Made by a program: the position numbers and the translations under genes. Below the pieces are notes generated by a model, which was not told the DNA's origin, ran no database searches, and saw only the letters and a program-made list of their open reading frames with translations. Shown here piece after piece: positions 4,948 to 51,406 of a stretch of 64,000 nt of DNA (within the stretch, counting starts at the first letter, position 1; each line of letters starts with the position of its first letter). Where the stretch lies: assembly GCF_000317145.1 (NCBI RefSeq), contig NC_019697.1:1798001-1862000 (forward strand). Direction: 5' to 3'. The DNA comes from Chamaesiphon minutus PCC 6605. GTDB taxonomy: Bacteria; Cyanobacteriota; Cyanobacteriia; Cyanobacteriales; Chamaesiphonaceae.

Positions 4948-4950
4948 GTC

Positions 4951-5016
4951 AGTGAAGGTGTCACCACCCCCACTGCTCTCCAAAACCGTGCTTGCGCCTT
5001 TTAACGCACACGGCTC
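4951..5016 (-). ncRNA. group II intron domains V and VI
   Basis: Domain V is the complement of 4981-5016: GAGCCGTGTGCG pairs through a short loop with CGCAAGCACGGTTTTG. Domain VI follows, with AGTG..GGTG pairing to CACC..CACT around a GTGA loop at 4951-4974. These are the catalytic and branch-point parts of the ribozyme. Their position at the far 3' end sets the intron boundary. Confidence 0.8.
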
Positions 5017-5038
5017 CTCAGTAAAACGGTTGTTGTCA

Positions 5039-26532: not shown

Positions 26533-26534
26533 GG

Positions 26535-27776: not shown

Positions 27777-27781
27777 AACAA

Positions 27782-30168: not shown

Positions 30169-33100
30169 TCAACTGCTGAAGAACTCCCAGGCGGTGCGGT
30201 AGTCTGCTACTCTGTCGCATTTGTCAAAGGGTGCTTGGTAGCTAATCGTCCGTTGATACGCGCCTGTGGGAAGGGTATCGTCGGTGGTGGTAATTTCTAC
30301 CGTCCCCTCGGTCATATTTTGGACACATTCCCAGCCGATGGTTTGGGTTTTTTTGTTGCCTTTGCGGGGTAAGCCGACACCGACTAAGCCTTTACTGGTG
30401 GTGAAGACTATTCGCCCGTTTTGGTCGAAGTAGGTTTCCCGTTCGTATTGTTGCATGACGGGAAATTGGACGCGGTAGATGGTAATCAGTTCTTCTAGGG
30501 TTAAACCGAGTGCCATTGCCACTAATACGTCGATTTCGACTAATGCCTGACGGCGGCTGTAGTCGCTGCGGAGGGCGCAGTTACGCTGCCAGTTGGGGGT
30601 GAGGTGCGACCAAAATGTGTTGGGTAGGCGCGGATCTGGTTTGCTCCATTGGGTGTGAGCGAATTCGGGTTGCCAGCAGTCTTGCCAGAGTTCGGTGTAG
30701 TGAGTGGTGAGGCAATTTAGGGTGAGGGTGCGGATCGTAAGATTGCGATCGGTTTCTGGTAATGGTAATAATCTTAATATTGATTCGTATAAGTCAGATT
30801 TACCAGTAGTCTTGATGTAAAAGTCATAGACAATTGAGCTAGATAAACCAGTGAATTTAATTAGCTGCTCTGAATTTTTAAAAGTTGTTGAAATAACTGG
30901 ATGAACATGGGCAGATCCTTTGGGCGTTATCGCTCCAATAAAAGTTCTTTCTCCTGATTGACTTAATTGCCGACGAGCAACAAATCGATAAAAATCAGTT
31001 ACGGGATTTTTGTCACCCCAGGGGACTTTAGGAGTACGACGGCGGTACTCTGCGGGGTCGCAGTCGGAGACATAGTTGGTTCGGGGAAGATAGTCATCGG
31101 CGATGGTGTTGAGATCTATGACATCATATTGACTATTTTGAACACAAATATAGCGCGGGGTTTTGTTCAGTGGATTACCAACAAAGAAGTGTGGGCCAGA
31201 GAGAATTAGACTTTTTATTTCATTACTCTGTTCTTCCGCAATTGAAGATGGAAAAGTAGTTTGACGGCGAATGGTGTGGTCTTTTTTAACAGCATTGGTT
31301 TCGTCAAACATCACAGTTGCATAATATTCACCTTGTAAGTCGCCGAGGTGTTGTGGTTGTCGAGCAAATTTTTCTAATACGCTGACTAAGTTTTGGGTAT
31401 GAATGGCGGGAAGTCGAGCAGATTCTGGTGCTGTACCTGATTCGTCGTAGAGTTGGGCAAAGAGGGCAAGCGTATCTCGATCGACACTAATAATTCTGCT
31501 AGGATGTCCAGTGGTTTCCCATTTACCTTCAGCATTTTTAATCCCTGGGACTGTGAGAGTATTTTCTGCTTCAAAGGATTCATAAATTGTGCTGGTGCTG
31601 TAGAGATTGGCCATATGCACAAGACGAATAATATCAGGTTCTTGAATAAGTATTTTTTGATAGATATTGATGCTAAATTTCGCATGATGGTCTACATCTG
31701 AAAATAGAGTGAACTCATTAGCAAACTGGAAATGAGCTTTTAGATATTGATAGAGTGTTTCTCGAAGCACCCCACCTTTAGGGTCGTCATAAACTCCTTC
31801 AGGATGTAGAAACCCAATCACCCCTTCTGGCTTACAAAATTGCCAAGCTTGAGGTAAAAAGCACTTAAATACATTAGTCTGCATTCCCTTGAGTAAGGGG
31901 TAATTTTGTACCGCATTTAAAAAGTTCTGAGTTCCCGCCGCTTCCTCATACTCTCGCAAATAAGCAGTGTATAGACGCAGAAATTTAGTAAACACTACCT
32001 CTCGCTGGTTTGCCAAGTCACTAGCCGAAAGTTTCCGCAATACCACCAGCGGATCGTAATCGCCCAAAATTCCGCCTTCTTCCCACTCTATTTTCAACCA
32101 CGGGGGATTTCCCACCATTAAGTCAAAACCGCCCCGCTCTTGGAAAATATCAGCAAACTCTAACTCCCAATGAAAAAAGTGTTGTCTGTCAGTAACTTCT
32201 GCCACAATTCCCAACCGAGGATAAAAGCGTTTTAGCTTATCTAAATCGACAAAGCCGTAAGTTTTGAGAGCTAATTGTCCCTGCTCGGCGGATTGGGTTT
32301 CGGGAAATAGGGCTAATTGTTGAGAGCTAGGAACTAACATTTCGGTTTCCCCCAAGATTGCCCCCACTTCTTGAAGAAATTGTTCGCGGCTGGGTAATTC
32401 CTCTGCTCGATCGATCGGCCAAAACCACAAAGCACACCAGTAATCCATCACCAGTTTCAGTCGGCGATATTTACTGGCATTACTGACACCTTGAGAGAGC
32501 TTTTCTTGCTCGTAGATTTTATCTTTCATCGCCAGGGGCACGCCGCCCCGTAACGAGTTGTTCGGTTGTCCCCAAACTTGGAGATCGTCGGTGGTGCGTT
32601 CCTTGATTTTGGCGAGTTCTTGGGCATATTCATCCCAGATCTCGGCGATCTTTTTACTCAAAATTACTGCATAGTCAGCCTGCTCTGGCGTAAATCCAGT
32701 TTTGGCGAACTCTTTTTGCCAAGTAGTAATTTGTCCGATTGCTGTTGGTTCGAGGGATTTAATTACTTTATCGGTGTAATTTGCCATCGCCGGATCGCCT
32801 AGTAAGAAGTGAAATATCCCTTCCCCAGACTTTTGTGCGATGGGTGAAGATTCATGCCATTTTCCTAAACCTTTTTTATCTGCGAGAATCTGCTGTTTAG
32901 TATATACCTGTCGCCGTGCGCCGATGAGAGAGTTACCACAGTGAAGCTGCGTTCCAAACCACGGGATAAATATCTGTTTATCTTTATCGCCATAAATGCA
33001 GTTGAGCCATAATGAAACCTCGGCTAACTCCATCGCGATCGGGTTTTTATCGATGCCATAGACATTGCGATCGGCTAGCAGCATTTTCACCTTCTGCTTC

Positions 33101-34974: not shown

Positions 34975-37847
34975 GATCCAACCCCTCGCAATACAGCTAC
35001 CAGCTTTAGATAAGGATATTCCTCAATGGTCATCGAAAGATCGACCCAGTTCTCATAATCTTGGAATAAGCGATCGAGTCGTTGTTCTTCCTGGTGACGA
35101 CGTTGCTCTGTGGCTGTCGTGGGCGTATCCTGGTCGAATTTGAGTTGAAGCTGGCGGCTATGATTTCCCTTGAGTCGCGACAATCGATCGCGTTGTTCCT
35201 CTAATTGGGGTGTGAGTTGCTGCAAGAATTCAGCTCGTGCTTGGGTGAGATGGGCGATCGATTTCCTGACAGCCTCCGCCCTCAATCCTTCCAATTCCTT
35301 GACTAGCAGAGGATCTATTTCTCCTGGGTTGGGAATTTCCGTTTTACCCAGTCGGGTACGTTGCACGGTTGTATCGAGAGTTTCGATCCGATCGAATTTA
35401 CTCCCATTGAATACCACCCCCAACCAGCGATTCATCAAGGTTTTACCCCGCTGATTGGCAAAGCTTCCCCACAGGATAAATACCGATTCTCCCTCAGCCA
35501 AACCACTATTCAACTCGATCGCTGGAGCCTGATGTCGTCCGAATCGAAACAACCCCCGATCCTTGAGCCATTCGACGAGCGGATGTAAATCCCACAAATA
35601 TTGCTGCTGGGGAAAGCTAGTTTCCAGGCGACGCGCTTCTTCCCATGCTTGCATGATTGCGTTCGGTCGATCGTTGAGTTGTAATAGTTGTTTATCTGAC
35701 GGACGGATTTCCGGCGGTAGCCGTTGATAACGTCGCTCCAATTCTGCGGGTATTTGTAACTCGATCGATCTTTCGGCTGGTTGAATATTCAAATTGGGGA
35801 TGGGTGTCTCGAAGGCTCCAAGCGCAGTCGCCGCATAATCATAGGTAGAAGGATACAAACTCAAGCTTTTGCCCTGTTCGACCTTTGGCGAGGCTACCGT
35901 CTCTTGGGCGGCATTCAGGCTACCGTCATCGGGATTTTCAAACCAAGCAAAGATATCGAAATCTCCCCCTTTGGCTGCATTTGTTTCTAACTGCGCCGAA
36001 AACTCTGCCGCAGATAGCCCCGACTCGATCGATCGAGCGGTATATTCCTCCTCTGCTTGAGCGTCAAATACGCCCATAAATACCGAAGGATCGCCAATAT
36101 TTTTAATCGCTTGCTCGTCTTTATTTAACAACACTTTGATAATCCGTTCGACCTCATCCATCCGCTCTAATTGCGATCGCGTAAGCAAATAACGAATTTG
36201 AGGCGGTCTGGTTTGCCCATAGCGATCGATTCTGCCATTCCTTTGCTGGAGTGTCATCAACGACCACGGAATATCAAAGTGAATCAATTTATGACTGAGA
36301 TAATGTAAATTTAAACCTTCCGAAGCTACTTCCGTGGCGAGTAAAATCCGCACCTTAGAATTTTCTTGCCCGAACGCTTCGACCACCCGATTCTGGTCGG
36401 TATCTGGCATACTGCCGTCTAACACCTCGATCGCTTCTGGTTTGAGTTGGAGATCGATCGGCAACCGCTGTTTGAGCAATCTCAAGCTTTCTAATCTACT
36501 AGTAAAAATCACCAAACGGTCTTGGGGATCTTTGCCGTTCCACTTAAAATCTGTTTGAACTAATTGCAACAATCGCTGATATTTACTGAATTGCTCGATT
36601 GATACTTGCTCTAATATCTGCCCTAATTCCGTTAATTCATGTAGATCGGGTTCGGCACTATTTACATTACCCCGCAGCAGTTTTAATCGATTATTAACAG
36701 TTTCCAAACAAGCTGCCGGACTAGAAAGAAAAGACTTGAGCAGAGTAGTTTTAAATAACTGCTTACCCTTGCGATTGCCATCGATTCCGCCCAATTGGAG
36801 ATTTTCTAACGCCCTAAATACCCGTTCTTCTATCTCTGAGGCTTGAGCTTCTACCGATGCTACTTGCCGTTCGGGAATACTTAGTCGCAAATCTCGCAAC
36901 ACATCCTTCTTAAACCGCCGGACGTAAAGATCGCGAATGTCTTCCTTCGTATAATCTGACTCATCGGCGATCGCCGTCGGATCGAGCATATTCATCAAAC
37001 TAGCAAAACTCTCTGGACGACCATCATGGGGCGTAGCAGACAGCAGAATCAGCGTATCCGATCTGTTTGCCAACCGTTCGGCTAACTTCGCCCGTTGGGA
37101 GGCTCCTTGACCCCGTTTCGCGACATTATGCGCCTCATCGATGACGATAATATCCCAATGTGCCTGTTCTAAGTACACCCGATACTCCCGATCTTGCTTG
37201 AGCGTATCGATCGAGATAATCGTCCGATCGTAGTAGTGAAAGGGATTATGATTGCCAGGAATTTGGAGTCGAATCCGTTGAATCGTGCCAGAGTCCAATT
37301 TCACCAGCGGAATGGTGAACCGCACCCAGAATTCCTTCTGAAACTGCACCATCATCGATTTGTTGGTGACAACCAAAATCCGCTTGCCTCGATCGCGGCG
37401 AATTAGCTCCGACACCAAAATCCCGCATTCCAGTGTCTTCCCCAACCCCACGGCATCAGCAATCAAAATCCGCTGTCGAGGTGCCGCCAGAGACTTATAA
37501 GCAGGATAGAGTTGATAATCCATCACATCCATCGCCGCCTGTTGCCCCACATAGATTTTGCCGTCTTCCGGCACCGTTTGCCGCAGGTGGGACTCGATGA
37601 ACAGTAGACTATGGACGTAACCGTGAGAGCGATCGGCGACTAGATTAGTATGTTCTGGCTGAAGTACTTCTAAATCGGTTTCGAGTTCTTCAATGAACTG
37701 CACAGATCTACCCCGAATAAACTCCGATACTCCGATCGCTTCAATTACCCTGCCACCATCAGTAGAGCGGCTGGTAGACTTCACCAACCACTCCGCATCG
37801 CGACACAATATTCTGGCTCCAGGGGCAATCGAGCTTTGGATCGTCAT
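34965..37847 (-). CDS. DISARM DrmD-like SNF2 helicase
   Basis: 960 aa. Walker A is IADAVGLGKTLECGIL (~129-144), motif II IIVIDEAHNVA (DEAH at 237-240), motif III LLSATPHDGRP. The second RecA domain has RLVIFTSRLESL, ATEVASEGLNLHYL and QQRNGRIDRYGQTR. The opening GARILCRDAEWLV and GVSEF segment is characteristic of the SNF2-type proteins I associate with class 1 DISARM. First gene of the operon, followed by the methylase with a 10-bp overlap. It likely uses ATP to move along double-stranded DNA. Confidence 0.85.
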   Translation of the reverse strand: MTIQSSIAPGARILCRDAEWLVKSTSRSTDGGRVIEAIGVSEFIRGRSVQFIEELETDLEVLQPEHTNLVADRSHGYVHSLLFIESHLRQTVPEDGKIYVGQQAAMDVMDYQLYPAYKSLAAPRQRILIADAVGLGKTLECGILVSELIRRDRGKRILVVTNKSMMVQFQKEFWVRFTIPLVKLDSGTIQRIRLQIPGNHNPFHYYDRTIISIDTLKQDREYRVYLEQAHWDIIVIDEAHNVAKRGQGASQRAKLAERLANRSDTLILLSATPHDGRPESFASLMNMLDPTAIADESDYTKEDIRDLYVRRFKKDVLRDLRLSIPERQVASVEAQASEIEERVFRALENLQLGGIDGNRKGKQLFKTTLLKSFLSSPAACLETVNNRLKLLRGNVNSAEPDLHELTELGQILEQVSIEQFSKYQRLLQLVQTDFKWNGKDPQDRLVIFTSRLESLRLLKQRLPIDLQLKPEAIEVLDGSMPDTDQNRVVEAFGQENSKVRILLATEVASEGLNLHYLSHKLIHFDIPWSLMTLQQRNGRIDRYGQTRPPQIRYLLTRSQLERMDEVERIIKVLLNKDEQAIKNIGDPSVFMGVFDAQAEEEYTARSIESGLSAAEFSAQLETNAAKGGDFDIFAWFENPDDGSLNAAQETVASPKVEQGKSLSLYPSTYDYAATALGAFETPIPNLNIQPAERSIELQIPAELERRYQRLPPEIRPSDKQLLQLNDRPNAIMQAWEEARRLETSFPQQQYLWDLHPLVEWLKDRGLFRFGRHQAPAIELNSGLAEGESVFILWGSFANQRGKTLMNRWLGVVFNGSKFDRIETLDTTVQRTRLGKTEIPNPGEIDPLLVKELEGLRAEAVRKSIAHLTQARAEFLQQLTPQLEEQRDRLSRLKGNHSRQLQLKFDQDTPTTATEQRRHQEEQRLDRLFQDYENWVDLSMTIEEYPYLKLVAVLRGVGSCH

Positions 37848-40260: not shown

Positions 40261-40285
40261 AGTTAAGTCTAGTGGGTCGAGCTGA

Positions 40286-40306
40286 ATGCCATTTGGCATA
40301 TATAAT
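40286..40306 (+). promoter_or_regulatory. probable autoregulated toxin-antitoxin promoter
   Basis: An inverted repeat ATGCCA-TT-TGGCAT (40286-40299) lies directly before a TATAAT box at 40301-40306, 32 bp upstream of the antitoxin ATG. A further TGGCA half-site follows at 40316. This layout suits repression by the antitoxin's DNA-binding domain. Confidence 0.55.
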
Positions 40307-40337
40307 TAAGACAGATGGCAAAAAAGTTGAAAAACCG

Positions 40338-40718
40338 ATGACAATTGCATCCGCAGCATCTAAAATCCTCGATCCCAACCCGCTCCGATATCAGACCCTA
40401 GAACAAACCGCCGAACGCTTTGGGCTAGACAGCAATCTCAGACAGCAGATTTTTGGGATATCGCCTCGAAATCAAGCCCGTCTGCGGAAGGACAATGGGG
40501 TCTTAAATCCGTTAATAGTCGATCGATTAAATAGATTTAACCGGATAACCCAGCAAGCAATTAACTTATTTGAAGACACTCACAGAGCGACTATTTGGCT
40601 GCAAACTCCTAAAAATAGTCTCTCAGGGATGACACCCCTGGCAGCTCTATCTACAGACGAAGGTGCAAAACTAGTCGAGGAAATTCTCTACCGTACCGAA
40701 TATGGGATTTACGGCTAG
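40338..40718 (+). CDS. Xre/ParS-type (MbcA-like) antitoxin
   Basis: About 126 aa from the ATG at 40338, preferred over the upstream GTG at 40272 because a TATAAT-like box lies between them. The N-terminal part is helix-turn-helix-like, and the C-terminal DUF2384 toxin-binding region reads AINLFEDTHRATIWLQTPKN, then SLSGMTPLAAL and GAKLVEEILYRTEYGIYG. This is the usual partner of RES-domain toxins. The stop TAG overlaps the toxin's GTG start by one base, giving tight coupling. Confidence 0.88.
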   Translation: MTIASAASKILDPNPLRYQTLEQTAERFGLDSNLRQQIFGISPRNQARLRKDNGVLNPLIVDRLNRFNRITQQAINLFEDTHRATIWLQTPKNSLSGMTPLAALSTDEGAKLVEEILYRTEYGIYG

Positions 40719-41176
40719 TGCGAATCTGGCGCATCACCGCAACCAAGCATATCGATACTGTCTTTTCTGGAGTCGGCGGACTTTATGCTAGCGGTCGGTG
40801 GCACCCGCAAGGCTATAAAATATCTTACACGTCCGAGAGTTTGGCATTGGCTAGCTTAGAGGTGTTTGTGCATAGCGAAACTACAGATATTCCACTTGCT
40901 TGCGTCAGTGCGATTATCCCCGATCGCACCCCCATATTGGAAGTTACCGATCTGCCCGTTAACTGGCAAGATGTTTCAGCTTATCCAGCTTTGCAAAAAA
41001 TCGGTCTTAACTGGCTCAAAGCGATGAAGTATCCGGTATTGAAGGTGCCTTCAGCGATAATACCTGTAGAGTATAACTACTTAATTAATCCCGAACACCC
41101 AGATCTAAAACTTCAAACAGAACAGGTGTTAACGTTCCAATTTGACAGTCGGATGTGGAAAAAAATTAACTTGTGA
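40718..41176 (+). CDS. RES-domain toxin (NAD+-depleting type)
   Basis: 152 aa with GTG start. The RES-family landmarks are visible: WRITATKH, the Arg-Gly-type strand GLYASGRWHPQGYKISYTSE with its Arg and Tyr, then SLALASLEVFVH with the conserved Glu, and the C-terminal FDSRMWK. RES toxins such as MbcT degrade NAD+. Pair of the preceding antitoxin. Normal length and no missing motif, so it is probably functional. Confidence 0.88.
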   Translation: MRIWRITATKHIDTVFSGVGGLYASGRWHPQGYKISYTSESLALASLEVFVHSETTDIPLACVSAIIPDRTPILEVTDLPVNWQDVSAYPALQKIGLNWLKAMKYPVLKVPSAIIPVEYNYLINPEHPDLKLQTEQVLTFQFDSRMWKKINL

Positions 41177-41541: not shown

Positions 41542-43431
41542 ATGGCGAAACTAATTCCGACTCTCAATAGCAGTCTATCAAGCATGACTGGTGGTGAAAA
41601 GAGAGTGGCACAGAGCCTAGAAGATAATTTAGATGATGATTATACGATTTGGTACGATGTAACCATTGGTAAAAAACAGCTTCGTCCCGATTTCACTATT
41701 TTCCATCCCCAGCGCGGATTACTCGTACTGGAAGTTAAAGATTGGAAACTCAACACGATCCAGTCGGCAGATCGGCAATCATTTGAGCTATTGACAGAAG
41801 GTAGGATTAAGAAAACTAAGAATCCGCTCGAACAAGCGCGGCGTTATGCTCTAGCGATTAATAATTTACTTTGCCAAGACAAAGATTTAGTCCAAACAGG
41901 TAAATATCACGGACAATTAATCTGTCCTTATAGTTATGGAGTCGTGCTAGCTAACATTACTCGTAAATCATTTCAAAGGAGCGATCTGAACACCATCCTT
42001 GATGAGCATTTAGTCATTTGCCAAGACGAAATTAAGCCCCAGGAGTCAATTGAGCTGCAACAAAGACTATGGGATATGTGCCCATATTCCTTCGGTCAAT
42101 CGGTAACGCACCACCAAGTAGATCGTATCCGCTGGCTGATGTTTCCCACTTGCCGCTTACCATCTGTACAGCTTTCGCTATTCTTGACAGAGCATCCGCT
42201 TTCTGATGCCGATCCCGATGCCGATCTAGATGTGCCTGTCACCGCTCAAGCAATCCCCGCAGACTTAATCCAAATCTTCGACCTCCAGCAAGAGACATTG
42301 GCTCGGAGCCTGGGTGATGGACATCGAGTGATTCATGGGGTTGCGGGATCTGGGAAAACCATGATTTTGATGTATCGTTGTAGCTATTTGGCTGCTCTCA
42401 ATCCCCAAAAACCTATTCTAGTCCTCTGTTTCAATGTCGCACTAGCCTCCCGCCTTAGACAGGCAATCGCTAGTGAAGATCTCGATAATATCGTTCACGT
42501 TCGCCACTTTCATCATTGGTGTGGCGATCTGCTCAAACGCTACCGTCTAGACCTACCCAAACAGTCAGATAATTACATCCAAGATCTCGAACGAGCGGTG
42601 CGGGATGCGATCGAGAAAGGTCAGATTCCAGCGTCAATGTACAGTAGTATCCTTATTGATGAGGGACACGACTTTGAACCAGAGTGGTTCGGAATGCTAA
42701 CCCATACTCTCGACGAACGGAAGTCGTTACTCCTACTCTATGATGATGCTCAAAATTTATATGGTCGCCAGCAGAATCGTAAGAAGTTCTCCTTCAAAAG
42801 TGTAGGGATCGAAGCCCAGGGGCGAACTTCGATCCTCAAGACAAATTATCGTAATACGATTGAGGTGCTGACTCTAGCTTCCGAATTCGCCAAAGATGTC
42901 ATGCAACCTAGCGAGTCTGCCGATGACGATACTCCAATTCTCATCAAGCCTTTGAGTGCGGGACGACACGGGCACCCACCGCAATTACTAAAATGTTTTA
43001 GCTTTCAAGACGAGGTGCAACAGGCAATCGCAATGGCGAAAGAGCTTCATGCTGAAGGTCAACCTTGGAATGAAATTGGCATTTTTCATGCACTGAGATT
43101 CATTGGTGAAGAAATTTATACTCAATTTCAAGCCGCCGATATCCCGATCGAGTGGTTAAATAAAGATGCAGCCAGTCGAGCGTATCAACCCAAACTCGAT
43201 AGTGTGAAAGTGATGACGATGCACTCATGCAAAGGGTTAGAGTTCTCTACTGTCATCATTCCAGGCATGGGCTATTTACCTAGTAAGTACGGTACTCCAG
43301 AGGATGATGCTCGGTTGCTCTATGTGGCAATGACTCGATCTACCGATCGATTGGTGATGAGCTATCATCAAGAGTCTGATTTTGTTCGGCGGTTGAGGCT
43401 TTCGATCGAGCATTCCAAACCTATCCATTAA
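41542..43431 (+). CDS. NERD nuclease-related domain fused to UvrD-type helicase
   Basis: 629 aa. The NERD domain is N-terminal: GGEKRVAQSL, WYDVTIGKKQLRPDFTIFHP and GLLVLEVKDWKL, keeping the D..E-x-K pattern (~52-75). The helicase domain follows: Walker A GVAGSGKTMILMY (~265), Walker B ILIDEGHDFEPEWF (~371), TNYRNTIEVL, MTMHSCKGLEFSTVIIPG (~558) and YVAMTRSTDRLVMSYH. NERD-helicases are widespread on plasmids and in defence islands, and their exact role is unclear. It ends 4 bp into the convergent reverse-transcriptase gene, so their 3' ends overlap. Confidence 0.88.
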   Translation: MAKLIPTLNSSLSSMTGGEKRVAQSLEDNLDDDYTIWYDVTIGKKQLRPDFTIFHPQRGLLVLEVKDWKLNTIQSADRQSFELLTEGRIKKTKNPLEQARRYALAINNLLCQDKDLVQTGKYHGQLICPYSYGVVLANITRKSFQRSDLNTILDEHLVICQDEIKPQESIELQQRLWDMCPYSFGQSVTHHQVDRIRWLMFPTCRLPSVQLSLFLTEHPLSDADPDADLDVPVTAQAIPADLIQIFDLQQETLARSLGDGHRVIHGVAGSGKTMILMYRCSYLAALNPQKPILVLCFNVALASRLRQAIASEDLDNIVHVRHFHHWCGDLLKRYRLDLPKQSDNYIQDLERAVRDAIEKGQIPASMYSSILIDEGHDFEPEWFGMLTHTLDERKSLLLLYDDAQNLYGRQQNRKKFSFKSVGIEAQGRTSILKTNYRNTIEVLTLASEFAKDVMQPSESADDDTPILIKPLSAGRHGHPPQLLKCFSFQDEVQQAIAMAKELHAEGQPWNEIGIFHALRFIGEEIYTQFQAADIPIEWLNKDAASRAYQPKLDSVKVMTMHSCKGLEFSTVIIPGMGYLPSKYGTPEDDARLLYVAMTRSTDRLVMSYHQESDFVRRLRLSIEHSKPIH

Positions 43432-44708
43432 TTATCCTGCTGTATTGCGGCATTGATTTTTTTCCAATGCCTACTAGTTTGACCCTTGATCTCAGCAGAA
43501 TTCATAATTTTACTGGCTCGATAAGCATACTTTATAAAATTACGTTTGCCCAAATGGGTGAATCTTTCGTACAAACTTCTGCGATAAATTATCTCCCCCC
43601 GATCGCTCTCTTTAGCAGCTTTTTTTGTGAAATAAATTGCTCTTTTCATTCTGCGATAGTATCTCGAAACTGTTTGAGATCTTATTAAACGTTTTTGACC
43701 ATCAAAAATAAAACCTAAATACTGTAATGGCTGTGTTTCTGGATGATAATATAAAAGTCCATTTTCTCTGATAAATTCAGACTTCTCGCTCTTGTCTTCA
43801 TTGATTGTCAGGTTACTCCCACTATTTTGAATCTCTTGATGAACTTTACGCATCGTTTTGTCAGATTGTTCTGGGTGACAAATCCATAGAATGTCATCAC
43901 AATACCTTCTATAAATACCACCAGTTTCTAAGGCATGATTTGACATTAAAATGTCAAATTCCCAGAGAAAAATATTAGATAATAATGCACTAATTGGAGA
44001 GCCTTGAGGGATTCCATGCTCAGTTGTATTAATTTTAATGCTGCTTTTAAGCTTACTTCTAAATTCTTGTGATGAGCAAATACGTCTTCTACTCTGTAAC
44101 TCTCTAAAATCTTTAATATTTAACTCTTGGCACACATCACTCATATTGATATATGAGTATTTGGTAATCGATTTATATACTTTGTAGTGATCTTTTGGCA
44201 ACTTTGAGTTATTTAAATCTAGTAATCGACACCATGAGAGCTTTAGTTTCTTATGATCTATGCAATCGAAAAATTTTGAAATGTCAAAAGTTAAGACAAT
44301 GCAGTGCTCTCTCTTTTCTACTTCATCGAATACATCTTTGGCAAAATCAATGTTTGATTTCCCTAAAGCACGATATGCTAAAACTGAAGAATTTAGATGT
44401 GTTTCTTTAATCCTTTCTTCATACCTCTTGTTCAGTAAATGTGTGTACCAAGAGTAAATATGAGAGTCGATGTGACTAGCATACATGATGGGACGATCTT
44501 TACTACTAACTTTTTTTAGCTCGCGTTTGTATTTCGGCGTACACTGAATTTTTCTTAAAAACGGCCAAAAAGAATGATTGATAATATTTTCAGGAGTTTC
44601 TACCTTACTTTTAGCATAATCTTTAGAAACTCTAAAATCAAAATGTGGATAACCTCGTGGTTTGTACCACTTGTTAAGAGGATCGGAATTATTTACACTT
44701 TTTTGCAC
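43428..44708 (-). CDS. antiphage reverse transcriptase, DRT2-like (YCDD type)
   Basis: 426 aa, GTG start. Reverse-transcriptase blocks: IVLTFDISKFFDCIDHKKL (first Asp, ~128-146), HGIPQGSPISALLSNIFLWEFD, and the catalytic RRYCDDILWI with YCDD in place of YADD. A C-terminal segment (RRMKRAIYFTKKAAK, HLGKRNFIKYAYRA) looks like the thumb. There is no maturase or HNH domain, so this is not an intron enzyme. The length and the YCDD box match what I recall of DRT2, which copies an upstream RNA by rolling-circle synthesis. The 290-nt structured leader supports this. DRT2 as opposed to another RT class is an inference. Confidence 0.75.
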   Translation of the reverse strand: MQKSVNNSDPLNKWYKPRGYPHFDFRVSKDYAKSKVETPENIINHSFWPFLRKIQCTPKYKRELKKVSSKDRPIMYASHIDSHIYSWYTHLLNKRYEERIKETHLNSSVLAYRALGKSNIDFAKDVFDEVEKREHCIVLTFDISKFFDCIDHKKLKLSWCRLLDLNNSKLPKDHYKVYKSITKYSYINMSDVCQELNIKDFRELQSRRRICSSQEFRSKLKSSIKINTTEHGIPQGSPISALLSNIFLWEFDILMSNHALETGGIYRRYCDDILWICHPEQSDKTMRKVHQEIQNSGSNLTINEDKSEKSEFIRENGLLYYHPETQPLQYLGFIFDGQKRLIRSQTVSRYYRRMKRAIYFTKKAAKESDRGEIIYRRSLYERFTHLGKRNFIKYAYRASKIMNSAEIKGQTSRHWKKINAAIQQDN

Positions 44709-44999
44709 GTATTTTCATAATAATTTAGCAGAGCTAGAGAGGAAGAATAGGGGCATCCTTAAATATCCTCTCAGCGCACGCTTACTCCCTTTTCAACATA
44801 ATAATAGACCCAGGAAAAACCAAGTTTTTTATTACTTTGCTTTTAATTAAGTGTCTAGTTCTTAAATGACAAAAGAGTGTTCCGTACCTTTCGATACGCC
44901 CCCTCTATAAACTATGTTATGAGTCTGTTTGGACATCTACTTGACACTGGAGTGGCTTTCGTGATAAACAGTGACCCCCATACAAATAAGGTGCATGGG
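44709..44999 (-). ncRNA. candidate DRT2-type template RNA upstream of the RT
   Basis: The 424-bp gap before the RT contains no protein gene on its strand. A plausible promoter is TAGATA-17 bp-TATTAA, with the -10 at 45006-45011 and a start near 44999, giving ~290 nt before the RT. Visible helices, read 5' to 3' on this strand, are CCCAT...ATGGG near the 5' end, CACTG...CAGTG, and a closing stem AGTGTC-(AAG)-TAG with CTA-GACACT (44937-44948 with 44850-44858) around a 78-nt loop. A 7-bp hairpin GAGAGGA/TCCTCTC (44766-44772 with 44737-44743) lies just before the RT. Confidence 0.45.
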
Positions 45000-45132
45000 C
45001 TAAAGTTAATATGCCCTAATTTGAAAGTTATCTAACATCAGACGACAAATATCAAGTGACTTTAAGCTGCCAATTGTTCAACATTCAACTCGGTATGCAT
45101 CTTTCTTGAAAGCTGTATGGATAGCTTCAATC

Positions 45133-45762
45133 TCAAAACAATTCTGGCAGCTTCCGATATTCTGCCAGAACTTTATCCAACGGCTCGATAAACACTTTGA
45201 TTATCTCTTGGACAGTGCTGCGCGTCTTTGGAGTCAACCGCGTAAAAGCCACCATTAACGAGCGATGTTTGCTCTGGTCTGGCAAGGTATAGACAAGGGT
45301 GGACATCTCTAACGGTTCGAGGACATCAATCCGCGTCCCATACTGGTACAACGTCCGCATCGTTTTAGTTGTCATGCCCGTGGCAAGCAGATCGTACCAT
45401 TGCTGCTGAGAAACACTCATCGGCATCAAAAACTGCACCTTGATGTTCTTTGCCAGCAATGGCTCTAATTCTTCGACCACTCGATCCGCTTCCCAAGCAT
45501 CGGTAGGAAGCGTTTGCCAGTAATAGGTATCTTCAAGCGATCGTACTCCTGATGAAACGAGATAATCGTTGAACTTCTCTGGCACTAAATCCGAGATGAC
45601 TACCGCACCTGTCTCATCCTCCAATAGCTCGTCAAGATCGGCGGTACCGCACAGTTCAAAATCGGCGGTAATCAGCTTGATATCGTATGACTTCATCAAA
45701 CTCTCGATCGCCTTGACACATAAATCCGTGTATCTGTTACAGGGGATTAGATGTAGCATCAA
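45133..45762 (-). CDS. unknown protein at the end of the partition operon, 209 aa
   Basis: No family recognised. It reads as an alpha/beta protein (IPCNRYTDLCVKAIESLMKS, then IKLITADFEL and GAVVISDLVP), with a basic-aromatic C-terminus. The start overlaps the ParA-like gene's stop by 4 bp, so it is translationally coupled and part of the segregation operon. It could be an adaptor or cargo-linking factor for the ATPase. The gene is followed by the DRT2-like leader. Confidence 0.65.
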   Translation of the reverse strand: MMLHLIPCNRYTDLCVKAIESLMKSYDIKLITADFELCGTADLDELLEDETGAVVISDLVPEKFNDYLVSSGVRSLEDTYYWQTLPTDAWEADRVVEELEPLLAKNIKVQFLMPMSVSQQQWYDLLATGMTTKTMRTLYQYGTRIDVLEPLEMSTLVYTLPDQSKHRSLMVAFTRLTPKTRSTVQEIIKVFIEPLDKVLAEYRKLPELF

Positions 45763-46682
45763 AAATATCCAGTATTTTTAACGGTCGCGAAACTGCGCTC
45801 TAACCAAGTTTTCAGGCGGTAGGCTACTCGCTGATTGATATCTGGAGCGGTGAGAATTTCACTGAATGTGAGGTTTTCTCTCTGGAGCCGGATCGATAAC
45901 TCTTCTGAAAGCACTACTTTATCGATGACTACTGCTTTTAGTTCTTTCTTGGCAATCATTTCATTGAGATCTGGATTGACTAAACCTAGCCTGTAGTTCT
46001 CCCACTCACTACTGCTACCAATCCCTTTATTGACGACCAGACAGTATTGTAGCTCTGGATATTTATACATGAAGTTTTCTAGTAAACTCAATGATTCATA
46101 AGACCCGTCGGATACCCAGAACAGCACAATTTGGATGGTGGTTGCCATTAAAGCAAGATCGGTTTCATCCAACCAATAACAAAGCCCTGACTGGGATTGA
46201 GATGGCAGCGAAATTATTGTATTGTCGCTTAACTCAACTACTTCAGAAAGCCTGTCTCGACTTTTAGTATCGTCGGGATTATTACTTAGTACTATCTGTT
46301 CCGAGAGCAATTTCTTGAGTCGAACTAGTGCATCTAATTGTCTACCTTCACTTCCTTCTATTGTCTCAAATAGTTGCTCCGCTCGAACATTGCTAGACGA
46401 CCACTGTTGGTATATATCCTTGAGATATGCTTTAGCAACGTTGGGAGTGGTTTTATCTAAGTCGAGGATAGTCGGGTCGCGATCTAACTGTAATAACAGC
46501 TCGATCAGAATGTATGTAAACCAAGTTTTGCCTACGCCCCCCTTCTCCCCACCCACAATGAATAGATGTTTGAGGATATTTGTATTGAGATCGACATGTG
46601 CCTCTAAATGTCCGTTAGATTCTGTAATTGCGGATGCTTCCATTTCTGGCTGTACCGTGGATTGTGCATTTGTTTCGCTCAT
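45759..46682 (-). CDS. ParA/MinD-type P-loop ATPase
   Basis: 307 aa. A deviant Walker A, GGEKGGVGKTWFTYILI (~43-59), follows a ~37-residue acidic N-terminal extension. Walker A' is ILDLDKTTPNV (~76-86). The usual ParA motif with D-x-P-P is not obvious; TIISLPSQSQSGLC may stand in its place. It lies 13 bp after the ParM-like gene. Finding ParA-like and actin-like ATPases in one operon is unusual, as partition loci normally use one or the other. It could position the plasmid, or serve mobilisation like TraL. Confidence 0.8.
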   Translation of the reverse strand: MSETNAQSTVQPEMEASAITESNGHLEAHVDLNTNILKHLFIVGGEKGGVGKTWFTYILIELLLQLDRDPTILDLDKTTPNVAKAYLKDIYQQWSSSNVRAEQLFETIEGSEGRQLDALVRLKKLLSEQIVLSNNPDDTKSRDRLSEVVELSDNTIISLPSQSQSGLCYWLDETDLALMATTIQIVLFWVSDGSYESLSLLENFMYKYPELQYCLVVNKGIGSSSEWENYRLGLVNPDLNEMIAKKELKAVVIDKVVLSEELSIRLQRENLTFSEILTAPDINQRVAYRLKTWLERSFATVKNTGYF

Positions 46683-46695
46683 TTACTTTCTCCTG

Positions 46696-47943
46696 TTAAG
46701 CAGTTTCTAAGTCTGACTTTAACCGTGAATTCACCCAATACCATAAACTGTAAATGTCAGCAAATCTCTCTTTGCTGACACTACTAAATCTAATACTTTC
46801 AGGAATATCTATTGCTAGATGAGTGTGTAGTTTTGTTAGACCATTTTTAATTATCTTTTTTTCTAAAAAGGATTTAAAATCTTCGTTTAAGTACTCTACC
46901 GTGCCACCACCCAACAAAATTAGATCGGATCTTGATGGCATCATTTCATTCAACCAATCTTTGACTCTAACTGAGTAGGCAATATTTTCCTTTTCAATTA
47001 CTGCAATCAGCATGTCTACTTCAGCTACTCGATCTTCACCTGAGTTTTTGAGTAAGGGATTAAATACTAACTCTGACTCGACCTGACATTCGGTGAGTTG
47101 GCAATCGAATAGCTCTAGTTCTCGCTTTAATCGATCCCGATGAGAGTAATCGAAACCGCTAAAATCTCGAAGACCCCGTTCGCGATCGTCGATCTGGCGA
47201 GTATATTTTGCTATTTGCTGTTTAAAGTAAGTGTAGTTAAATACTGGCTCGATGAGATCTTCAATCCGATATCCGGTCTTACCTGCAATCTCTTTGAGCA
47301 AATTATGGAAACCTAAGTCTGAAGTTTGAGAGCCATTGACCGACCCGTAGTTTGCCATGAAGATACTAGTGTTCCGAAATCCCACCATTACCACCGTAAT
47401 CGTGGCAATCTCTTTTAAATTTAACTCTTGCCCTAGCAATAATCCCATCCCTTCTGGAAAAGGAGATAAGCTCTTGAGCTTGGGCTTAATTCTACCCCTG
47501 GGAGTAACTAAATCCTTCACCGCAGCATTAATCCGAGCGGCGATCGTCTGCTTATGCTCCCACTCTGCCGGAGGTAAGACAAATGTTAGCGACAACTCAA
47601 ACCGCTCTGGTAGTTGAAACTTTTGGGCGAAGATACTAATTACCGCACAGGCTTTCTGGACGGCACTAGTAAACTTTAACGGCTTCACCTTTAAAGAGCT
47701 ATTAAATTTTGTTGTTGCTAAGTTGCCCAGCGCATAAGATTTCCCCTCAATTGTCACCCAACTTTGATGTTCGCTAAAGTCTGGATCGCAAGTCAACAAC
47801 GAATCATTCTCAACTTCCACACAATGAGGTGACATCGATAAAGTGATGCAATCTGATGGCGTACCGACGAGACTACCGATCGCTTTAGTTGCAGAGGCAC
47901 CAAAATCGACTGCCAACAACAAATGGGGTACTTTTTGCTTCAT
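46696..47943 (-). CDS. ParM/StbA-like actin-type partition ATPase
   Basis: 415 aa. The actin-fold phosphate-1 motif is LLLAVDFGASATKAIGSLVG (~8-27) and the adenosine motif is LILLGGGTVEYL (~343-354). A middle segment (TITVVMVGFRNTSIF) fits phosphate-2. Length is right for ParM/Alp-type plasmid actins, which form filaments that push plasmid copies apart. The gene follows the ParR-like gene after 48 bp and lies downstream of the 11-bp repeat array. Confidence 0.82.
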   Translation of the reverse strand: MKQKVPHLLLAVDFGASATKAIGSLVGTPSDCITLSMSPHCVEVENDSLLTCDPDFSEHQSWVTIEGKSYALGNLATTKFNSSLKVKPLKFTSAVQKACAVISIFAQKFQLPERFELSLTFVLPPAEWEHKQTIAARINAAVKDLVTPRGRIKPKLKSLSPFPEGMGLLLGQELNLKEIATITVVMVGFRNTSIFMANYGSVNGSQTSDLGFHNLLKEIAGKTGYRIEDLIEPVFNYTYFKQQIAKYTRQIDDRERGLRDFSGFDYSHRDRLKRELELFDCQLTECQVESELVFNPLLKNSGEDRVAEVDMLIAVIEKENIAYSVRVKDWLNEMMPSRSDLILLGGGTVEYLNEDFKSFLEKKIIKNGLTKLHTHLAIDIPESIRFSSVSKERFADIYSLWYWVNSRLKSDLETA

Positions 47944-47991
47944 GGTATGCTTTGCTCGTCCCCCGACCCTTGAGGGCAGGGCTAGTGAATG

Positions 47992-48480
47992 CTAGAAATT
48001 TAGGGGCAAAGAGTCAGGATCGTCACTGAAATCTTCAGGGATGTCATCTTTTGAGGTATTACGGCTAATCTCCTCATCTTCATTTCCTTCGGGTTCATGT
48101 ATTACCCTCATCCGTGATAACGGCTGTGTTCTTGGTTGTGGAGGACTTACTATGCTTTCAAATGTCATCGTTCCCAATCCAAATCTCATCAGAGACTGTG
48201 GTGTCAAATGAATTTTTCGTTTGATGCGATGATAGTCCACTATGTAGTTCATCTGTCTCCACAATGATTGTAGAGCCTCTAAAATGGCTAGCTCGACATC
48301 TTCATCTGTATTATTTGGATCTTCAGACAAAGCGTTCGCCCGAAAGTGGGCTTTAGCGGCTGCGAGTAATTGTCCCTTAACGTTCTTATTTGACTTGAGA
48401 TAGTTTGCCAGTAGCAGTTCGTCAGGATCGTTGTCTAGCAGATCTATCGTTAATAGCTTCTTAATCTTTTTGATCGTCAT
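47992..48480 (-). CDS. ParR-like partition adaptor, 162 aa
   Basis: The N-terminal ~55 residues (KLLTIDLLDNDPDELLLANY, LKSNKNVKGQLLAAAKAHF) fit the ribbon-helix-helix pattern of ParR/StbB proteins: a short strand, an Asp-Pro turn, helix, Ser/Asn loop, helix. The C-terminal tail is acidic and disordered (many Asp and Glu after residue 125), as in ParR, where the tail binds the actin filament. The gene sits between the 11-bp repeats and the ParM-like gene. Order repeats-ParR-ParM differs from R1, where ParM comes first. Confidence 0.65.
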   Translation of the reverse strand: MTIKKIKKLLTIDLLDNDPDELLLANYLKSNKNVKGQLLAAAKAHFRANALSEDPNNTDEDVELAILEALQSLWRQMNYIVDYHRIKRKIHLTPQSLMRFGLGTMTFESIVSPPQPRTQPLSRMRVIHEPEGNEDEEISRNTSKDDIPEDFSDDPDSLPLNF

Positions 48481-48590
48481 ACTTTATCGATCGCTACCCG
48501 TTCAAGCATTCATTTCAGTCTAACAGTTTCTAACTTGTATTGCGATCGTCGGGGATCTATTCCTGCATTATGTGTTGAATTTCCTGGCAT

Positions 48591-48788
48591 TTAAACATGA
48601 GTTAAACCTGGGTCAAACCTGGGTTAAACCTGGGTCAAACCTGGGTCGAACACGAGTCGAACACGAGTCGAACACGAGTCGAACACGAGTCGAACACGAG
48701 TCGAACCTAAATTAAACATGAGTCAAACCTGGGTTCAACCTGGGTTCAACCTGGGTCAGACCTGGGTTCAACCTGGGTCAAAAATGAT
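48591..48788. repeat. array of 17-18 direct 11-bp repeats (probable parC-type centromere)
   Basis: Seventeen uninterrupted 11-bp units run from 48591 to 48777, with a decayed eighteenth to 48788. Two unit types occur: TYAAACCTGGG or TTCAACCTGGG (outer blocks) and TCGAACACGAG (units 6-10, five identical copies). Unit 11 is a hybrid and units 1 and 12 read TTAAACATGAG. The period equals about one DNA turn and equals that of the R1 parC repeats bound by ParR. The array starts 110 bp before the ParR-like start codon. Replication iterons are the alternative. Confidence 0.9.
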
Positions 48789-48925
48789 AGATAAATAGTT
48801 ACTGCTCAAATTGATGTCCCATGCTCGATATTTCTAGTATTAATATAAGGATTTGGATTAGTATCGATATCAAAGCACATTACTTACCCGCCAATAGCGC
48901 AGCTATTTTGGCTAATCTCACACCT

Positions 48926-49004
48926 AGCCAGCTATGTGTATCGTCTGACGACTCGTTAAGTCTATCGACTTAACAACACACAGCATGGCTGGGGAGTTCC
49001 CCAG
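48926..49004. other. candidate oriT with nested inverted repeats
   Basis: AGCCA..GCTATGTGT (from 48926) pairs imperfectly with ACACACAGCATGGCT (to 48990). Inside is a perfect hairpin TTAAGTC-TATC-GACTTAA (48956-48973), and directly after is CTGGGGA-GT-TCCCCAG (48989-49004). It lies between the centromere-like array and mobC-relaxase, where oriT is expected. The nick site is not identified. Confidence 0.5.
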
Positions 49005-49172
49005 ACCCTCATCCCTAGTTCTATCATTACTTAATATTTTCTAGCACAAACATTAGCTTTTTAAATTCTGTATTTTTGTGTTTTATTACTGTAACTTCTA
49101 TGTTGACGATTGAAACTTGCGTGTATTGCGTGGGTATCTGCTAACTCGATTCTTAACTACGAATTGTGCTAT

Positions 49173-49568
49173 ATGGGTAAGAGCAAGCAAATTAAGAACA
49201 ACCGGATTACTCTACGATTTATTAACGATCTATTTGACGAGATCGCTGTACAGGCAGAAGCTTGTAACTCAACCGCCACGGTATACCTTCAGAACTTAAT
49301 CGATCGTGTCCTGCGCTCTACTCCTACTCCACTAACTCTAGTAACTCACCGCGACCGCGATTTGGAACTCTATCGCGCCTACTTACTGTGGCACCAAGAG
49401 TTACGATCTCAAGGTAACAACCTCAATCAGATTACCAAAGCGATTCATGCGGCAAATCTAGACGATCGAATGGTCGATCCTACCAATTGTTTGCGAGTGT
49501 TATCGAGCATCGCTAAAGCCAATCAGGAAATTGCTGCCGCCATTGCTAAATTGGAGCAATCGCTTTGA
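49173..49568 (+). CDS. MobC-like relaxosome accessory protein
   Basis: 131 aa from the ATG at 49173; the TTG at 49110 would add 21 poorly matching residues. N-terminal ribbon-helix-helix-like basic region (KSKQIKNNRITLRFINDLFD) and the C-terminal block ELRSQGNNLNQITKAIHAAN, typical of MobC/MbeC proteins that bind oriT and help the relaxase. The stop overlaps the relaxase TTG start, so the pair is translationally coupled. Confidence 0.85.
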   Translation: MGKSKQIKNNRITLRFINDLFDEIAVQAEACNSTATVYLQNLIDRVLRSTPTPLTLVTHRDRDLELYRAYLLWHQELRSQGNNLNQITKAIHAANLDDRMVDPTNCLRVLSSIAKANQEIAAAIAKLEQSL

Positions 49569-51406
49569 TTAGCAACATTACCAAAGGGTCGAATTTTGGC
49601 GGGTTGCTGCGCTATTTACTACACGAATCAAAGCAACCCCAGATCGTCGCGCCCTATATGTTGGCTGATAACGCGAGCGATTTGGCGATCGAGTTCGATC
49701 GAATTGCCAGTCTGCGGCCCACGACTCAATTACCCGTCCGGCATATCTCGCTGTCCTTTGCACCCGCCGATGATGGCAAGGTATCGGATTCAGATAAAGA
49801 AGCGATCGTCGTGCGGGTAGTTGCCGAAATGGGGTACGAAGATTGTCAATTTATCGGTATCGCCCACCACCGCGACGACCCAGGACATGACTTACCACAC
49901 GACCACGAACATCTACATATCGTTGTGAATGCCGTCAATGTTCATGGGGAGAGAGTTTCTGATAGTTGGGACAGGTTCAGGATTCAACCGATTCTGCGGG
50001 AGATCGAGCGCGACTTTGGCTTGCAGCCCGTCAAAAACTCTTGGGAACTAGATCGGGATAGATCTGCTCAAGCCAAGCCACAAGTCTCGACCGACTTGAA
50101 GCAACAAGTCGATCGATCCTTAGAGGACTGCCCCAATCTAGAGACTTGGCTGATGCGCTTGCAGGAGTCCCAAATCGATGTCCGATTTGCCCTGAGAAAA
50201 GATAATAAGATCAATGGCATTACTTATCTTCAAGATGGTAAAGCCTATAAGGGCAGCGACATTGGGGCAAGTTGGAGTGCGATCGAGCAACGAGTTCCCA
50301 TAGTCCCCGACAACCTTCCCCTCATCAGGGCGGCTAATGCCAAAAGCCAGGAGCATCGGATCGATTTAGGCGAGATCGACCGACAGAACTTCAATCGGGC
50401 AGCGGTGATGGCAAATGCAACCTTAAAGGGGCGCGAACGGGTCAAAACCGGACGACTCGACATCAAACGCGATGGTGACACTCTGACGGCTTACCGGATG
50501 CGTCCACATCGCCAAATCTTGAAAGCGATCGAGACACAAGGGGGATGGGAACCTGTGGGTTTTCCAAATATCGATCGTGTAGATCTCAATTTATTGACGA
50601 AACTATCTGGCGATCGAGACGCGTCAGTCTACATATCAGAAGAGAAGGATCTGACAATCGACCGTAAACCCCCAACAATTGAAGTGTCCCCGACCGCCGC
50701 TGCTGTACCGAAGCGCGACCGGATTGAGGCGGAAATCGACCTTTACCCATCGATAGTCGAACGCCAGGAGCAATCAGACCAGACATCGACGGCATTGCCA
50801 GTACAGCGACCTTCGATTTTCCATGCGGAGATTAAGTTCGATATTGAGGCAATTACCAAGACTATCCATCAAAACTTTGCCGATACCCAAGAGCGGATAC
50901 GGCAAAGTGGGAGCAACTATTCACAAAGGCTCGATCGGACTTTTGGAACGTTAATGTCTGGCGAACCGCCCCAACCCCAAGGACGAGTCGAGACTGTGAA
51001 TGACACCCAGCAATTTGTGGACAATGGGATCGAGCGACTGCCAGAGCTAGCACAGTCAAACAGTACCCCCGTAACTTTGAAGCAAATCATCGACCTGAAG
51101 AACTACTATAAAAAGTCCCACGAAGGACGCGCCAAGACGGAGAGCGTCGATGCCCAAGAAAAGTTTGACATCTATAAGTTTCAAATATCTCAGCATGGTA
51201 AAGCGGTAACGGGCGATCCGAATCTCAAGCTGACAAATAAGTTTTTTAAGACCTTCGAGTCCGATCGGGTGATGCTCTCAACCACAGATCGAGCTAACTT
51301 AGGTGCGGCTTCGGCGTTTGCGAACGAACAGGCACAGATCGCTCTTGAAATCGCCCAAGCATCATTGCTCGAAACCAAACAGCGCAGCCGTGGATTTTCG
51401 AGGTGA
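49565..51406 (+). CDS. relaxase/mobilisation nuclease (MobP/VirD2-like)
   Basis: 613 aa, TTG start overlapping the mobC stop. The N-terminal relaxase domain has the catalytic-Tyr region (GLLRYLLHESKQ, ~12-23), FDRIASLRP, HISLSFAPADDGKV and the metal-binding His cluster HDLPHDHEHLHIVVNAV (~108-124). A repeated Arg/Asp-rich linker region follows, then a helical C-terminus from ~450. It nicks at oriT and pilots the strand in conjugation. No VirB/VirD4 transfer genes are in the window, so it marks a mobilisable unit rather than a self-transmissible one. Appears complete. Confidence 0.88.
   Translation: MISNITKGSNFGGLLRYLLHESKQPQIVAPYMLADNASDLAIEFDRIASLRPTTQLPVRHISLSFAPADDGKVSDSDKEAIVVRVVAEMGYEDCQFIGIAHHRDDPGHDLPHDHEHLHIVVNAVNVHGERVSDSWDRFRIQPILREIERDFGLQPVKNSWELDRDRSAQAKPQVSTDLKQQVDRSLEDCPNLETWLMRLQESQIDVRFALRKDNKINGITYLQDGKAYKGSDIGASWSAIEQRVPIVPDNLPLIRAANAKSQEHRIDLGEIDRQNFNRAAVMANATLKGRERVKTGRLDIKRDGDTLTAYRMRPHRQILKAIETQGGWEPVGFPNIDRVDLNLLTKLSGDRDASVYISEEKDLTIDRKPPTIEVSPTAAAVPKRDRIEAEIDLYPSIVERQEQSDQTSTALPVQRPSIFHAEIKFDIEAITKTIHQNFADTQERIRQSGSNYSQRLDRTFGTLMSGEPPQPQGRVETVNDTQQFVDNGIERLPELAQSNSTPVTLKQIIDLKNYYKKSHEGRAKTESVDAQEKFDIYKFQISQHGKAVTGDPNLKLTNKFFKTFESDRVMLSTTDRANLGAASAFANEQAQIALEIAQASLLETKQRSRGFSR

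What the first reader, a model, noticed from the sequence alone, without database searches (positions are those of the whole stretch)
43428..44999. Probable DRT2 reverse transcriptase with a structured leader that may be a rolling-circle template
The RT has a YCDD catalytic box, 426 residues and a ~290-nt leader with promoter-like boxes and several helices. A 9-bp closing stem (AGTGTC-TAG with CTA-GACACT) encloses exactly 78 nt (44859-44936), a multiple of three. The cDNA-sense (plus) strand has no stop from 44859 to 45032 (58 codons). Known DRT2 systems copy such a template repeatedly to create a long repetitive gene. A cyanobacterial version with a different unit would be new. The stop-free run alone could be chance, and extending the unit through the whole stem would bring a TAG into frame.
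Basis: partly seen in the sequence, partly recalled or inferred. Interest (0 to 1): 0.88.

Follow-up and report, generated by a model that had tools for sequence, protein, structure and literature searches.

The report
Cyanobacterial DRT2 with a short template
A cyanobacterium carries an antiviral enzyme that probably copies a 57-letter piece of its own small RNA over and over into a long repetitive gene; it resembles a system known from gut bacteria, but the repeat is about half as long and a different short sequence guides the jump from one copy to the next.

Summary
The RT at 43428-44708 (-) is a genuine DRT2 (519 bits, cut-off 390). In the window A is GTTTAT (44964-44969) and A' GTTTAT (44907-44912), so the unit is 57 nt (44913-44969): a multiple of three, cyclically stop-free, encoding YVMSLFGHLLDTGVAFVIN. 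Joining units creates TTGACA-N18-TAAACT, absent from the linear leader; none of five rival units does so. Relatives give 60, 75 and 75 nt. Of 13 DRT2 leaders, 9 pass four tests at 7 nt from the hairpin (0.14 expected). The two Calothrix RTs are 94% identical but their templates only 53%, with length, frame and matching A/A' kept. Published units are 111-129 nt with ACA ends. Against: L055 lacks the promoter; 9 of 10 further leaders fail the rule; the whole-leader fold does not show the hairpin; no cDNA data. A new variant of DRT2.

The parts
43428..44708 (-). DRT2 reverse transcriptase, 426 aa, YCDD, GTG start
   Evidence: NCBIfam Drt2 519 bits (cut-off 390); PADLOC Drt2 4.6e-155; solved DRT2 structures about 4e-98 over residues 7-418
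44726..45000 (-). predicted ncRNA (about 275 nt): 5' handle, template, 3' domain; both ends inferred from conservation, not mapped
   Evidence: alignment of four cyanobacterial leaders; coordinates
44977..44999 (-). 5' handle hairpin CCCATGCA/TGTATGGG
   Evidence: 8 pairs, 32 of 32 cells paired over 4 leaders, 3 pairs changed on both sides; formed in the local fold but not in the minimum-energy fold of the whole leader
44964..44969 (-). alignment motif A, GTTTAT, 7 nt after the handle; 5' end of the template RNA
44913..44969 (-). predicted 57-nt template unit, read as cDNA on the + strand: YVMSLFGHLLDTGVAFVIN
   Evidence: multiple of 3, cyclically open, junction promoter
44907..44912 (-). second copy A', GTTTAT, where the cDNA end is predicted to re-anneal
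44941..44946 (+). TTGACA, -35-like box of the joined cDNA; the -10-like TAAACT is 44965-44969 plus the T at 44913 of the next unit, spacer 18, TG extension
   Evidence: no such site in the linear leader
44961..44963 (+). in-frame GTG 8 nt after GGAG (44949-44952), a possible Neo start; in-frame ATG also at 44919-44921
   Evidence: read directly from the sequence of the unit; inference
   Evidence: alignment A2
44733..44775 (-). 3' hairpin (GCTGAGAGG...CCTCTCTAGC) of the conserved 3' block AGCGTGCGCT-hairpin-TAGCTCTGCTA
   Evidence: conserved block; 30 of 32 cells paired, not above shuffles, both unpaired cells in the window row

Best explanation
A DRT2 antiphage system in a cyanobacterium. Shown by sequence: a DRT2 RT; a leader with a conserved 5' handle; GTTTAT 7 nt after the handle and again 57 nt further on; a 57-nt cyclic unit with one open cDNA-sense frame; a promoter-like site that appears only when units are joined. 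Inferred from the studied DRT2: the RT copies the leader RNA from A' to A and stops near the handle; the cDNA end, complementary to GTTTAT, lets go of A and re-anneals to A', so each round adds 57 nt; after second-strand synthesis each junction acts as a promoter for an endless mRNA encoding a 19-aa hydrophobic repeat (Neo), whose translation stops the growth of the infected cell.
For: RT identity and one clade with the three relatives, support 100/98. A/A' repeats give units of 57, 60, 75 and 75 nt, 4 of 4 multiples of three and cyclically open; MAFFT placed both copies in register without being told. Junction promoter in 3 of 4, none in five rival window units, 2 of 2 in the E. coli controls. 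At 7 nt from the handle 9 of 13 leaders pass four tests at once, 0.14 expected; the window passes in 1 of 400 shuffles, and in 0 of 3000 if 6 matching bases are required. Hairpins found automatically: the window has one, and it gives only the 57-nt unit. Calothrix pair: RT 396 of 421 residues identical, template plus A' 43 of 81 bases, no indel, the same two changes in A and A'.
Against: L055 has no junction promoter. The -10 in the window is 4 of 6 with spacer 18, not the published 17. 9 of 10 further leaders fail the rule and the single pass looks like chance; L047 and L046 fail at 7 nt. L044 has a second, weaker candidate of 63 nt. The minimum-energy fold of the whole window leader does not contain the handle. 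An open frame alone is expected in 55-74% of shuffled units. The window's Neo repeat is not significantly similar to any Neo compared (p 0.07-0.78). No RNA, cDNA or phage data.
Confidence: 0.8

Rival explanations
1. One reading: the template is the 78 nt (44859-44936) closed by the AGTGTC-TAG/CTA-GACACT stem.
For: The arms exist, 78 is a multiple of three and the unit is open when joined.
Against: The 3' arm lies in a stretch absent from the three relatives; the arms do not pair with each other in the best fold; no junction promoter.
Confidence: 0.04
2. A working rolling-circle DRT2 whose template has other limits in the window, for example because of the extra stretch in its leader (102 or 105 nt with 4-nt repeats).
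For: The window leader is longer than its relatives'; 102- and 105-nt units with 4-nt repeats are multiples of three and open.
Against: No junction promoter in these; the 105-nt repeat does not begin at the 7-nt position, and the 102-nt one is a 4-nt match.
Confidence: 0.08
3. A DRT2 that makes repetitive cDNA by the same jump but acts through the DNA, not through a translated Neo protein.
For: PMC11100668 (section 10, read) reports that Neo was hard to annotate in more divergent DRT2 clades and suggests other mechanisms; L055 lacks a junction promoter; peptide-level selection in the Calothrix pair is only suggested (p 0.045 or 0.17).
Against: Multiple of three, open frame and junction promoter all hold in the window.
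Confidence: 0.07

Closest known systems
Klebsiella pneumoniae DRT2 / neo (PMC12039810: main text and one methods section read, Discussion passage seen; PMC11100668: sections 7 and 10 and part of the figure legends read)
   Same: RT family; upstream ncRNA of about 280 nt with 5' handle; matching motifs at the two template ends; unit a multiple of three and stop-free on the cDNA strand; promoter formed across the junction; template the least conserved part.
   Different: Published units 111-129 nt (120 in K. pneumoniae) with ACA at both ends; here 57 nt (relatives 60 and 75) with GTTTAT (relatives GTTT, TTACTTAT, ATTCA). The SL2 stem could not be identified. RT about 40% identical to the E. coli/Klebsiella kind.
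DRT10 (PMC12632851: abstract and section 8 read)
   Different: DRT10 repeats are 9 nt in the main example and protein-primed; here the RT is DRT2 and the unit is open with a junction promoter.
E. coli chromosomal DRT2 (L061, L062; positive controls)
   Same: Handle, 7-nt gap (after moving the L061 handle end by one base), matching ends, multiple of three, open frame, junction promoter.
   Different: 117-nt units, ACA motif, promoter 11 and 12 of 12 with spacer 17.

Membership tests
DRT2 (UG2) family | RT over the curated family cut-off | tested here: met
   519.3 bits, cut-off 390; PADLOC Drt2
DRT2 (UG2) family | YCDD catalytic motif, single RT domain without added domains | tested here: met
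   sequence; only RVT_1 in Pfam
DRT2 (UG2) family | structured ncRNA directly upstream, with 5' handle and 3' domain | tested here: met
   handle covariation, conserved 3' block; transcription not tested, and the whole-leader fold does not show the handle
DRT2 (UG2) family | pseudoknot in the 3' domain | not tested
   -
DRT2 (UG2) family | unit a multiple of three with a stop-free cDNA-sense frame across the junction | tested here: met
   57 nt, one open frame; weak alone
DRT2 (UG2) family | -35/-10 promoter formed across the repeat junction | tested here: met
   TTGACA-18-TAAACT, 10 of 12; spacer 18 instead of the published 17
DRT2 (UG2) family | tandem-repeat cDNA on infection | not testable with these tools
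   -
DRT2 (UG2) family | Neo protein toxic or growth-arresting | not testable with these tools
   only hydropathy computed: GRAVY 1.26, six non-cyanobacterial Neo units 0.66-0.82
K. pneumoniae-type neo subgroup of DRT2 | ACA-1 and ACA-2 at the template ends | tested here: not met
   the 7-nt position holds GTTTAT, matched by GTTTAT
K. pneumoniae-type neo subgroup of DRT2 | unit of 111-129 nt | tested here: not met
   57 nt predicted; a 120-nt CACT unit has stops in every cDNA-sense frame
K. pneumoniae-type neo subgroup of DRT2 | SL2 stem pairing the letters before A with A' | tested here: inconclusive
   no such pairing seen by eye in the alignment; no formal test
DRT10 | A-B-A' template with an RT of the DRT10 family | tested here: not met
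   A-B-A' present, but the RT is DRT2

The most novel reading that the evidence does not exclude
The ACA motif is only one form of a more general DRT2 rule: the RT stops a fixed 7 nt short of the 5' handle, whatever sequence stands there becomes the alignment motif A, and it only has to be matched by an A' downstream. Template length, sequence and motif can then change together, giving cyanobacterial systems with units of 57-75 nt and Neo repeats of 19-25 aa, about half the known size, possibly with a different way of harming the cell.
Probability: 0.55. Interest if true: 0.72.

Novelty: new variant of a known kind. Interest (0 to 1): 0.62.

Why it matters
Published work left open how DRT2 picks its template ends although ACA also occurs inside the template (PMC12039810, Discussion passage), and why Neo could not be annotated in divergent clades (PMC11100668 section 10). 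A fixed distance from the handle plus a free, matched A/A' pair would help with both and gives direct tests: swap A and A' together, or move the handle by one nucleotide. It would let the repetitive gene be predicted from genome sequence in DRT2s that lack ACA, and it makes 19 aa a candidate for the shortest working Neo repeat.

Tried and rejected

A likeness of the window Neo to E. coli Neo (VMSLFGHLL, VMSIVHLL) looked attractive but is not significant (p 0.19 and 0.30). Conservation of the peptide between the two Calothrix templates is only suggestive (p 0.045 or 0.17 by two nulls).

Searches for more close relatives gave little. The one genome-contig scan found a single 24% identical RT. 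Viral-contig scans gave none or weak partial matches (5 loci, 3). Genome searches of 195, 386, 388, 388, 42 and 20 genomes, which overlap, gave a close DRT2 only in the window's genome and G587; eight genomes of one other family (f47) carry 36-50% identical ones. The 20-genome search had no positive in its set and shows nothing by itself.

The 7-nt rule was tried on ten more leaders (RTs 29-38% identical to the window's, overlapping in identity with the first set): 1 of 10 passed, with a 3-nt match, probably chance. The handles of some may have been missed, since the search asked for 7 pairs or more. The rule is not claimed for all DRT2. An earlier scan for a 5-of-6 promoter pair plus matching ends gave at least one candidate in 10 of 14 non-window leaders; several of those are doubtful.

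In one search the shuffle figures for L044 and L045 were computed on gapped alignment rows by mistake (a name clash) and are not used; serve instead. The first tree held two rows read in a wrong frame (L033, L034); it was rebuilt without them, and group support rose from 86/99 to 100/98. The 3' hairpin count does not exceed its shuffles (186 of 500 as high) and is not used as covariation evidence.
Full report
The RT. The ORF at 43428-44708 (-) encodes 426 aa with YCDD. It scores 519 bits with NCBIfam Drt2 (cut-off 390), matches PADLOC Drt2 at 4.6e-155 and solved DRT2 structures (9lje, 9c0i and others; that they are the K. pneumoniae protein is recalled) at about 4e-98 over residues 7-418. RVT_1 is its only Pfam match.

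Relatives. tblastn found 19 plasmid records at E 1e-30 or better, the best two being Calothrix plasmids (L044, L045; 52-53% identity). Genome searches found one more (L055 in G587, 52%; 2 of 388 genomes with the window's own). In 388 genomes of the window's order only its own genome matched. In a tree of 17 RTs the four form one group, support 100/98, in 100% of 200 bootstrap trees (it replaces). Two E. coli DRT2s served as positive controls (L061, L062; L062 matches 9c0i at 1e-170).

Leader anatomy. The four cyanobacterial leaders (A2) share a 5' handle hairpin: 8 pairs, 32 of 32 cells paired, three pairs changed on both sides; 17 of 500 shuffles reach this and slid versions pair 12-69% of cells. 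They also share a 3' block, AGCGTGCGCT-hairpin-TAGCTCTGCTA or close to it. Folding supports this only in part: the handle forms in the local fold of the window and in the fold of L055, but not in the minimum-energy folds of the whole window and L044 leaders.

Template ends. In the published system ACA stands at both ends of the template, the unit is the distance between the copies, and the cDNA end moves from one to the other (PMC11100668 section 7; PMC12039810 main text). In the four cyanobacterial leaders a direct repeat sits just after the handle and again before a conserved GG-rich element: GTTTAT (window, 57 nt apart), GTTT (L055, 60), TTACTTAT (L044, 75), ATTCA (L045, 75). All four distances are multiples of three and all four units have a stop-free cDNA-sense frame when joined head to tail. 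MAFFT, not told of this, put both copies in register. The repeat by itself is moderate evidence (window p 0.027, L044 0.014, L055 and L045 0.44; Fisher 0.014) and openness by itself is weak.

Junction promoter. With fixed criteria (at least 4 of 6 per box, 9 of 12 in all, spacer 16-18, A and T at the key -10 positions) the joined window unit makes TTGACA-18-TAAACT with a TG extension; L044 makes TTGTCA-17-AATAAT, L045 TTGCTA-17-TACAAT, L055 none. Shuffled units make such a site in 8.2% (window), 11.1% (L044), 13.5% (L045) and 2.5% (L055). Five rival window units make none; the E. coli controls make 11 and 12 of 12. The linear window leader has none on either strand.

A fixed distance. Counted from the last pair of the handle, A begins 7 nt downstream in the window, L055, L044 (its ACTTAT core; the full repeat starts 2 nt earlier), L045 and E. 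coli L062. Over 13 leaders, four tests at once (match of 3 or more, multiple of 3, open frame, junction promoter) are passed by 9 at spacing 7. At the other 24 spacings 0-7 pass; the high counts (7 at 8 nt, 5 at 9 and at 10, 4 at 6) adjoin 7, as expected for motifs longer than 3 nt. Shuffles predict 0.14 passes of 13; the window passes in 1 of 400 shuffles, and in 0 of 3000 when six matching bases are required. Spacing 7 was chosen after seeing the data, and the 13 include close pairs (L044/L045, L051/L052, L061/L062), so these figures are not formal probabilities. Handle ends were placed by eye; in local folds the last paired base is the same in 4 of 13, further outer pairs or another fold being predicted in the rest. 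With stems found automatically (7 pairs or more) 8 of 13 pass: L061 gained, L051 and L052 lost; the window has one such stem and it gives only the 57-nt unit. Misses at 7 nt: L055 (no promoter), L047 (passes at 9-10), L046 (4-nt match 145 nt away), L061 by eye. Of ten further leaders 1 passed, probably by chance.

Evolution of the template. The two Calothrix systems share 396 of 421 RT residues, 1195 of 1266 RT bases, 28 of 31 handle bases and 46 of 52 plus 56 of 60 scaffold bases, but 43 of 81 across template plus A' (Fisher 3e-10). There is no indel, and A and A' carry the same two changes. The template was also the least conserved part in the published set. Peptide-level selection is only suggested.

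Mechanism. Shown: sequence anatomy and its conservation. Inferred from the studied DRT2: RNA binding, priming, jumping from A to A', second strand, transcription from junctions, Neo translation and growth arrest. In the joined unit GGAG stands 8 nt before an in-frame GTG, and an in-frame ATG lies just after the junction (read). The repeat is hydrophobic (GRAVY 1.26; six non-cyanobacterial Neo units 0.66-0.82; other cyanobacterial ones 0.12-1.03).

What is new. The papers I read give 111-129-nt units with ACA ends for 42 near relatives of K. pneumoniae DRT2 and say that Neo annotation was difficult in divergent clades. 'DRT2' with 'cyanobacteria' returned one paper, seen as a listing and unrelated by title and abstract; (listings) showed no study of cyanobacterial DRT2 or of units this short. 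PMC12596737 was seen in one passage only. The final journal version of PMC11100668 and all supplements were out of reach, so a mention there cannot be excluded. DRT10 uses the same A-B-A' logic for 9-nt repeats (PMC12632851 section 8).

Verdict. DRT2 identity is firm; a 57-nt template is likely (0.8). cDNA sequencing would decide.

Noticed in passing
window 41542-43431 (+): NERD-UvrD helicase-like protein (PADLOC C3a187, 1.2e-183) convergent with the RT gene, the two overlapping by 4 nt at their ends.
   Followed up: partly
window 16574-37847: Defence-island content by PADLOC: GajB-like helicase 16574-18727, DruE-like 18731-25177, Nsn A/B/C 25402-28660, type IIG restriction-methylase 30169-34974, DrmD-like helicase 34965-37847.
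   Followed up: partly
window 40272-41176 (+): Xre-like antitoxin and RES-domain toxin pair.
   Followed up: no
window 45759-51406: Plasmid-like genes beside the DRT2 on a 6.28-Mb contig: a weak ParA/CbiA-like ATPase at 45759-46682 and a MobA/VirD2-type relaxase at 49565-51406; perhaps an integrated mobilizable element.
   Followed up: no
window 4942-7027 (-): Group II intron (Rfam RF00029) with an RT-maturase-HNH ORF.
   Followed up: no
L053, L054 (phage records), L048, L051, L052: DRT2 leaders with predicted units of 132, 135, 138, 129 and 129 nt and motifs other than ACA (GTAT, GTAT, ATGT, GTT, GTT), all with a junction promoter.
   Followed up: partly
L046 (Nitratidesulfovibrio plasmid): Perfect junction promoter (12 of 12, spacer 17) with a 4-nt ACTG match at 7 nt, but the distance is 145 nt, not a multiple of three; a 144-nt alternative uses TTGA. 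Unexplained.
   Followed up: partly
L033-L043 (one family, f47, of about 2-Mb genomes in the same phylum): DRT2-like RTs, 36-50% identical in matched stretches, in 8 of 386 genomes, several apparently split or interrupted; the one leader tested with the rule (L035) does not fit it.
   Followed up: partly
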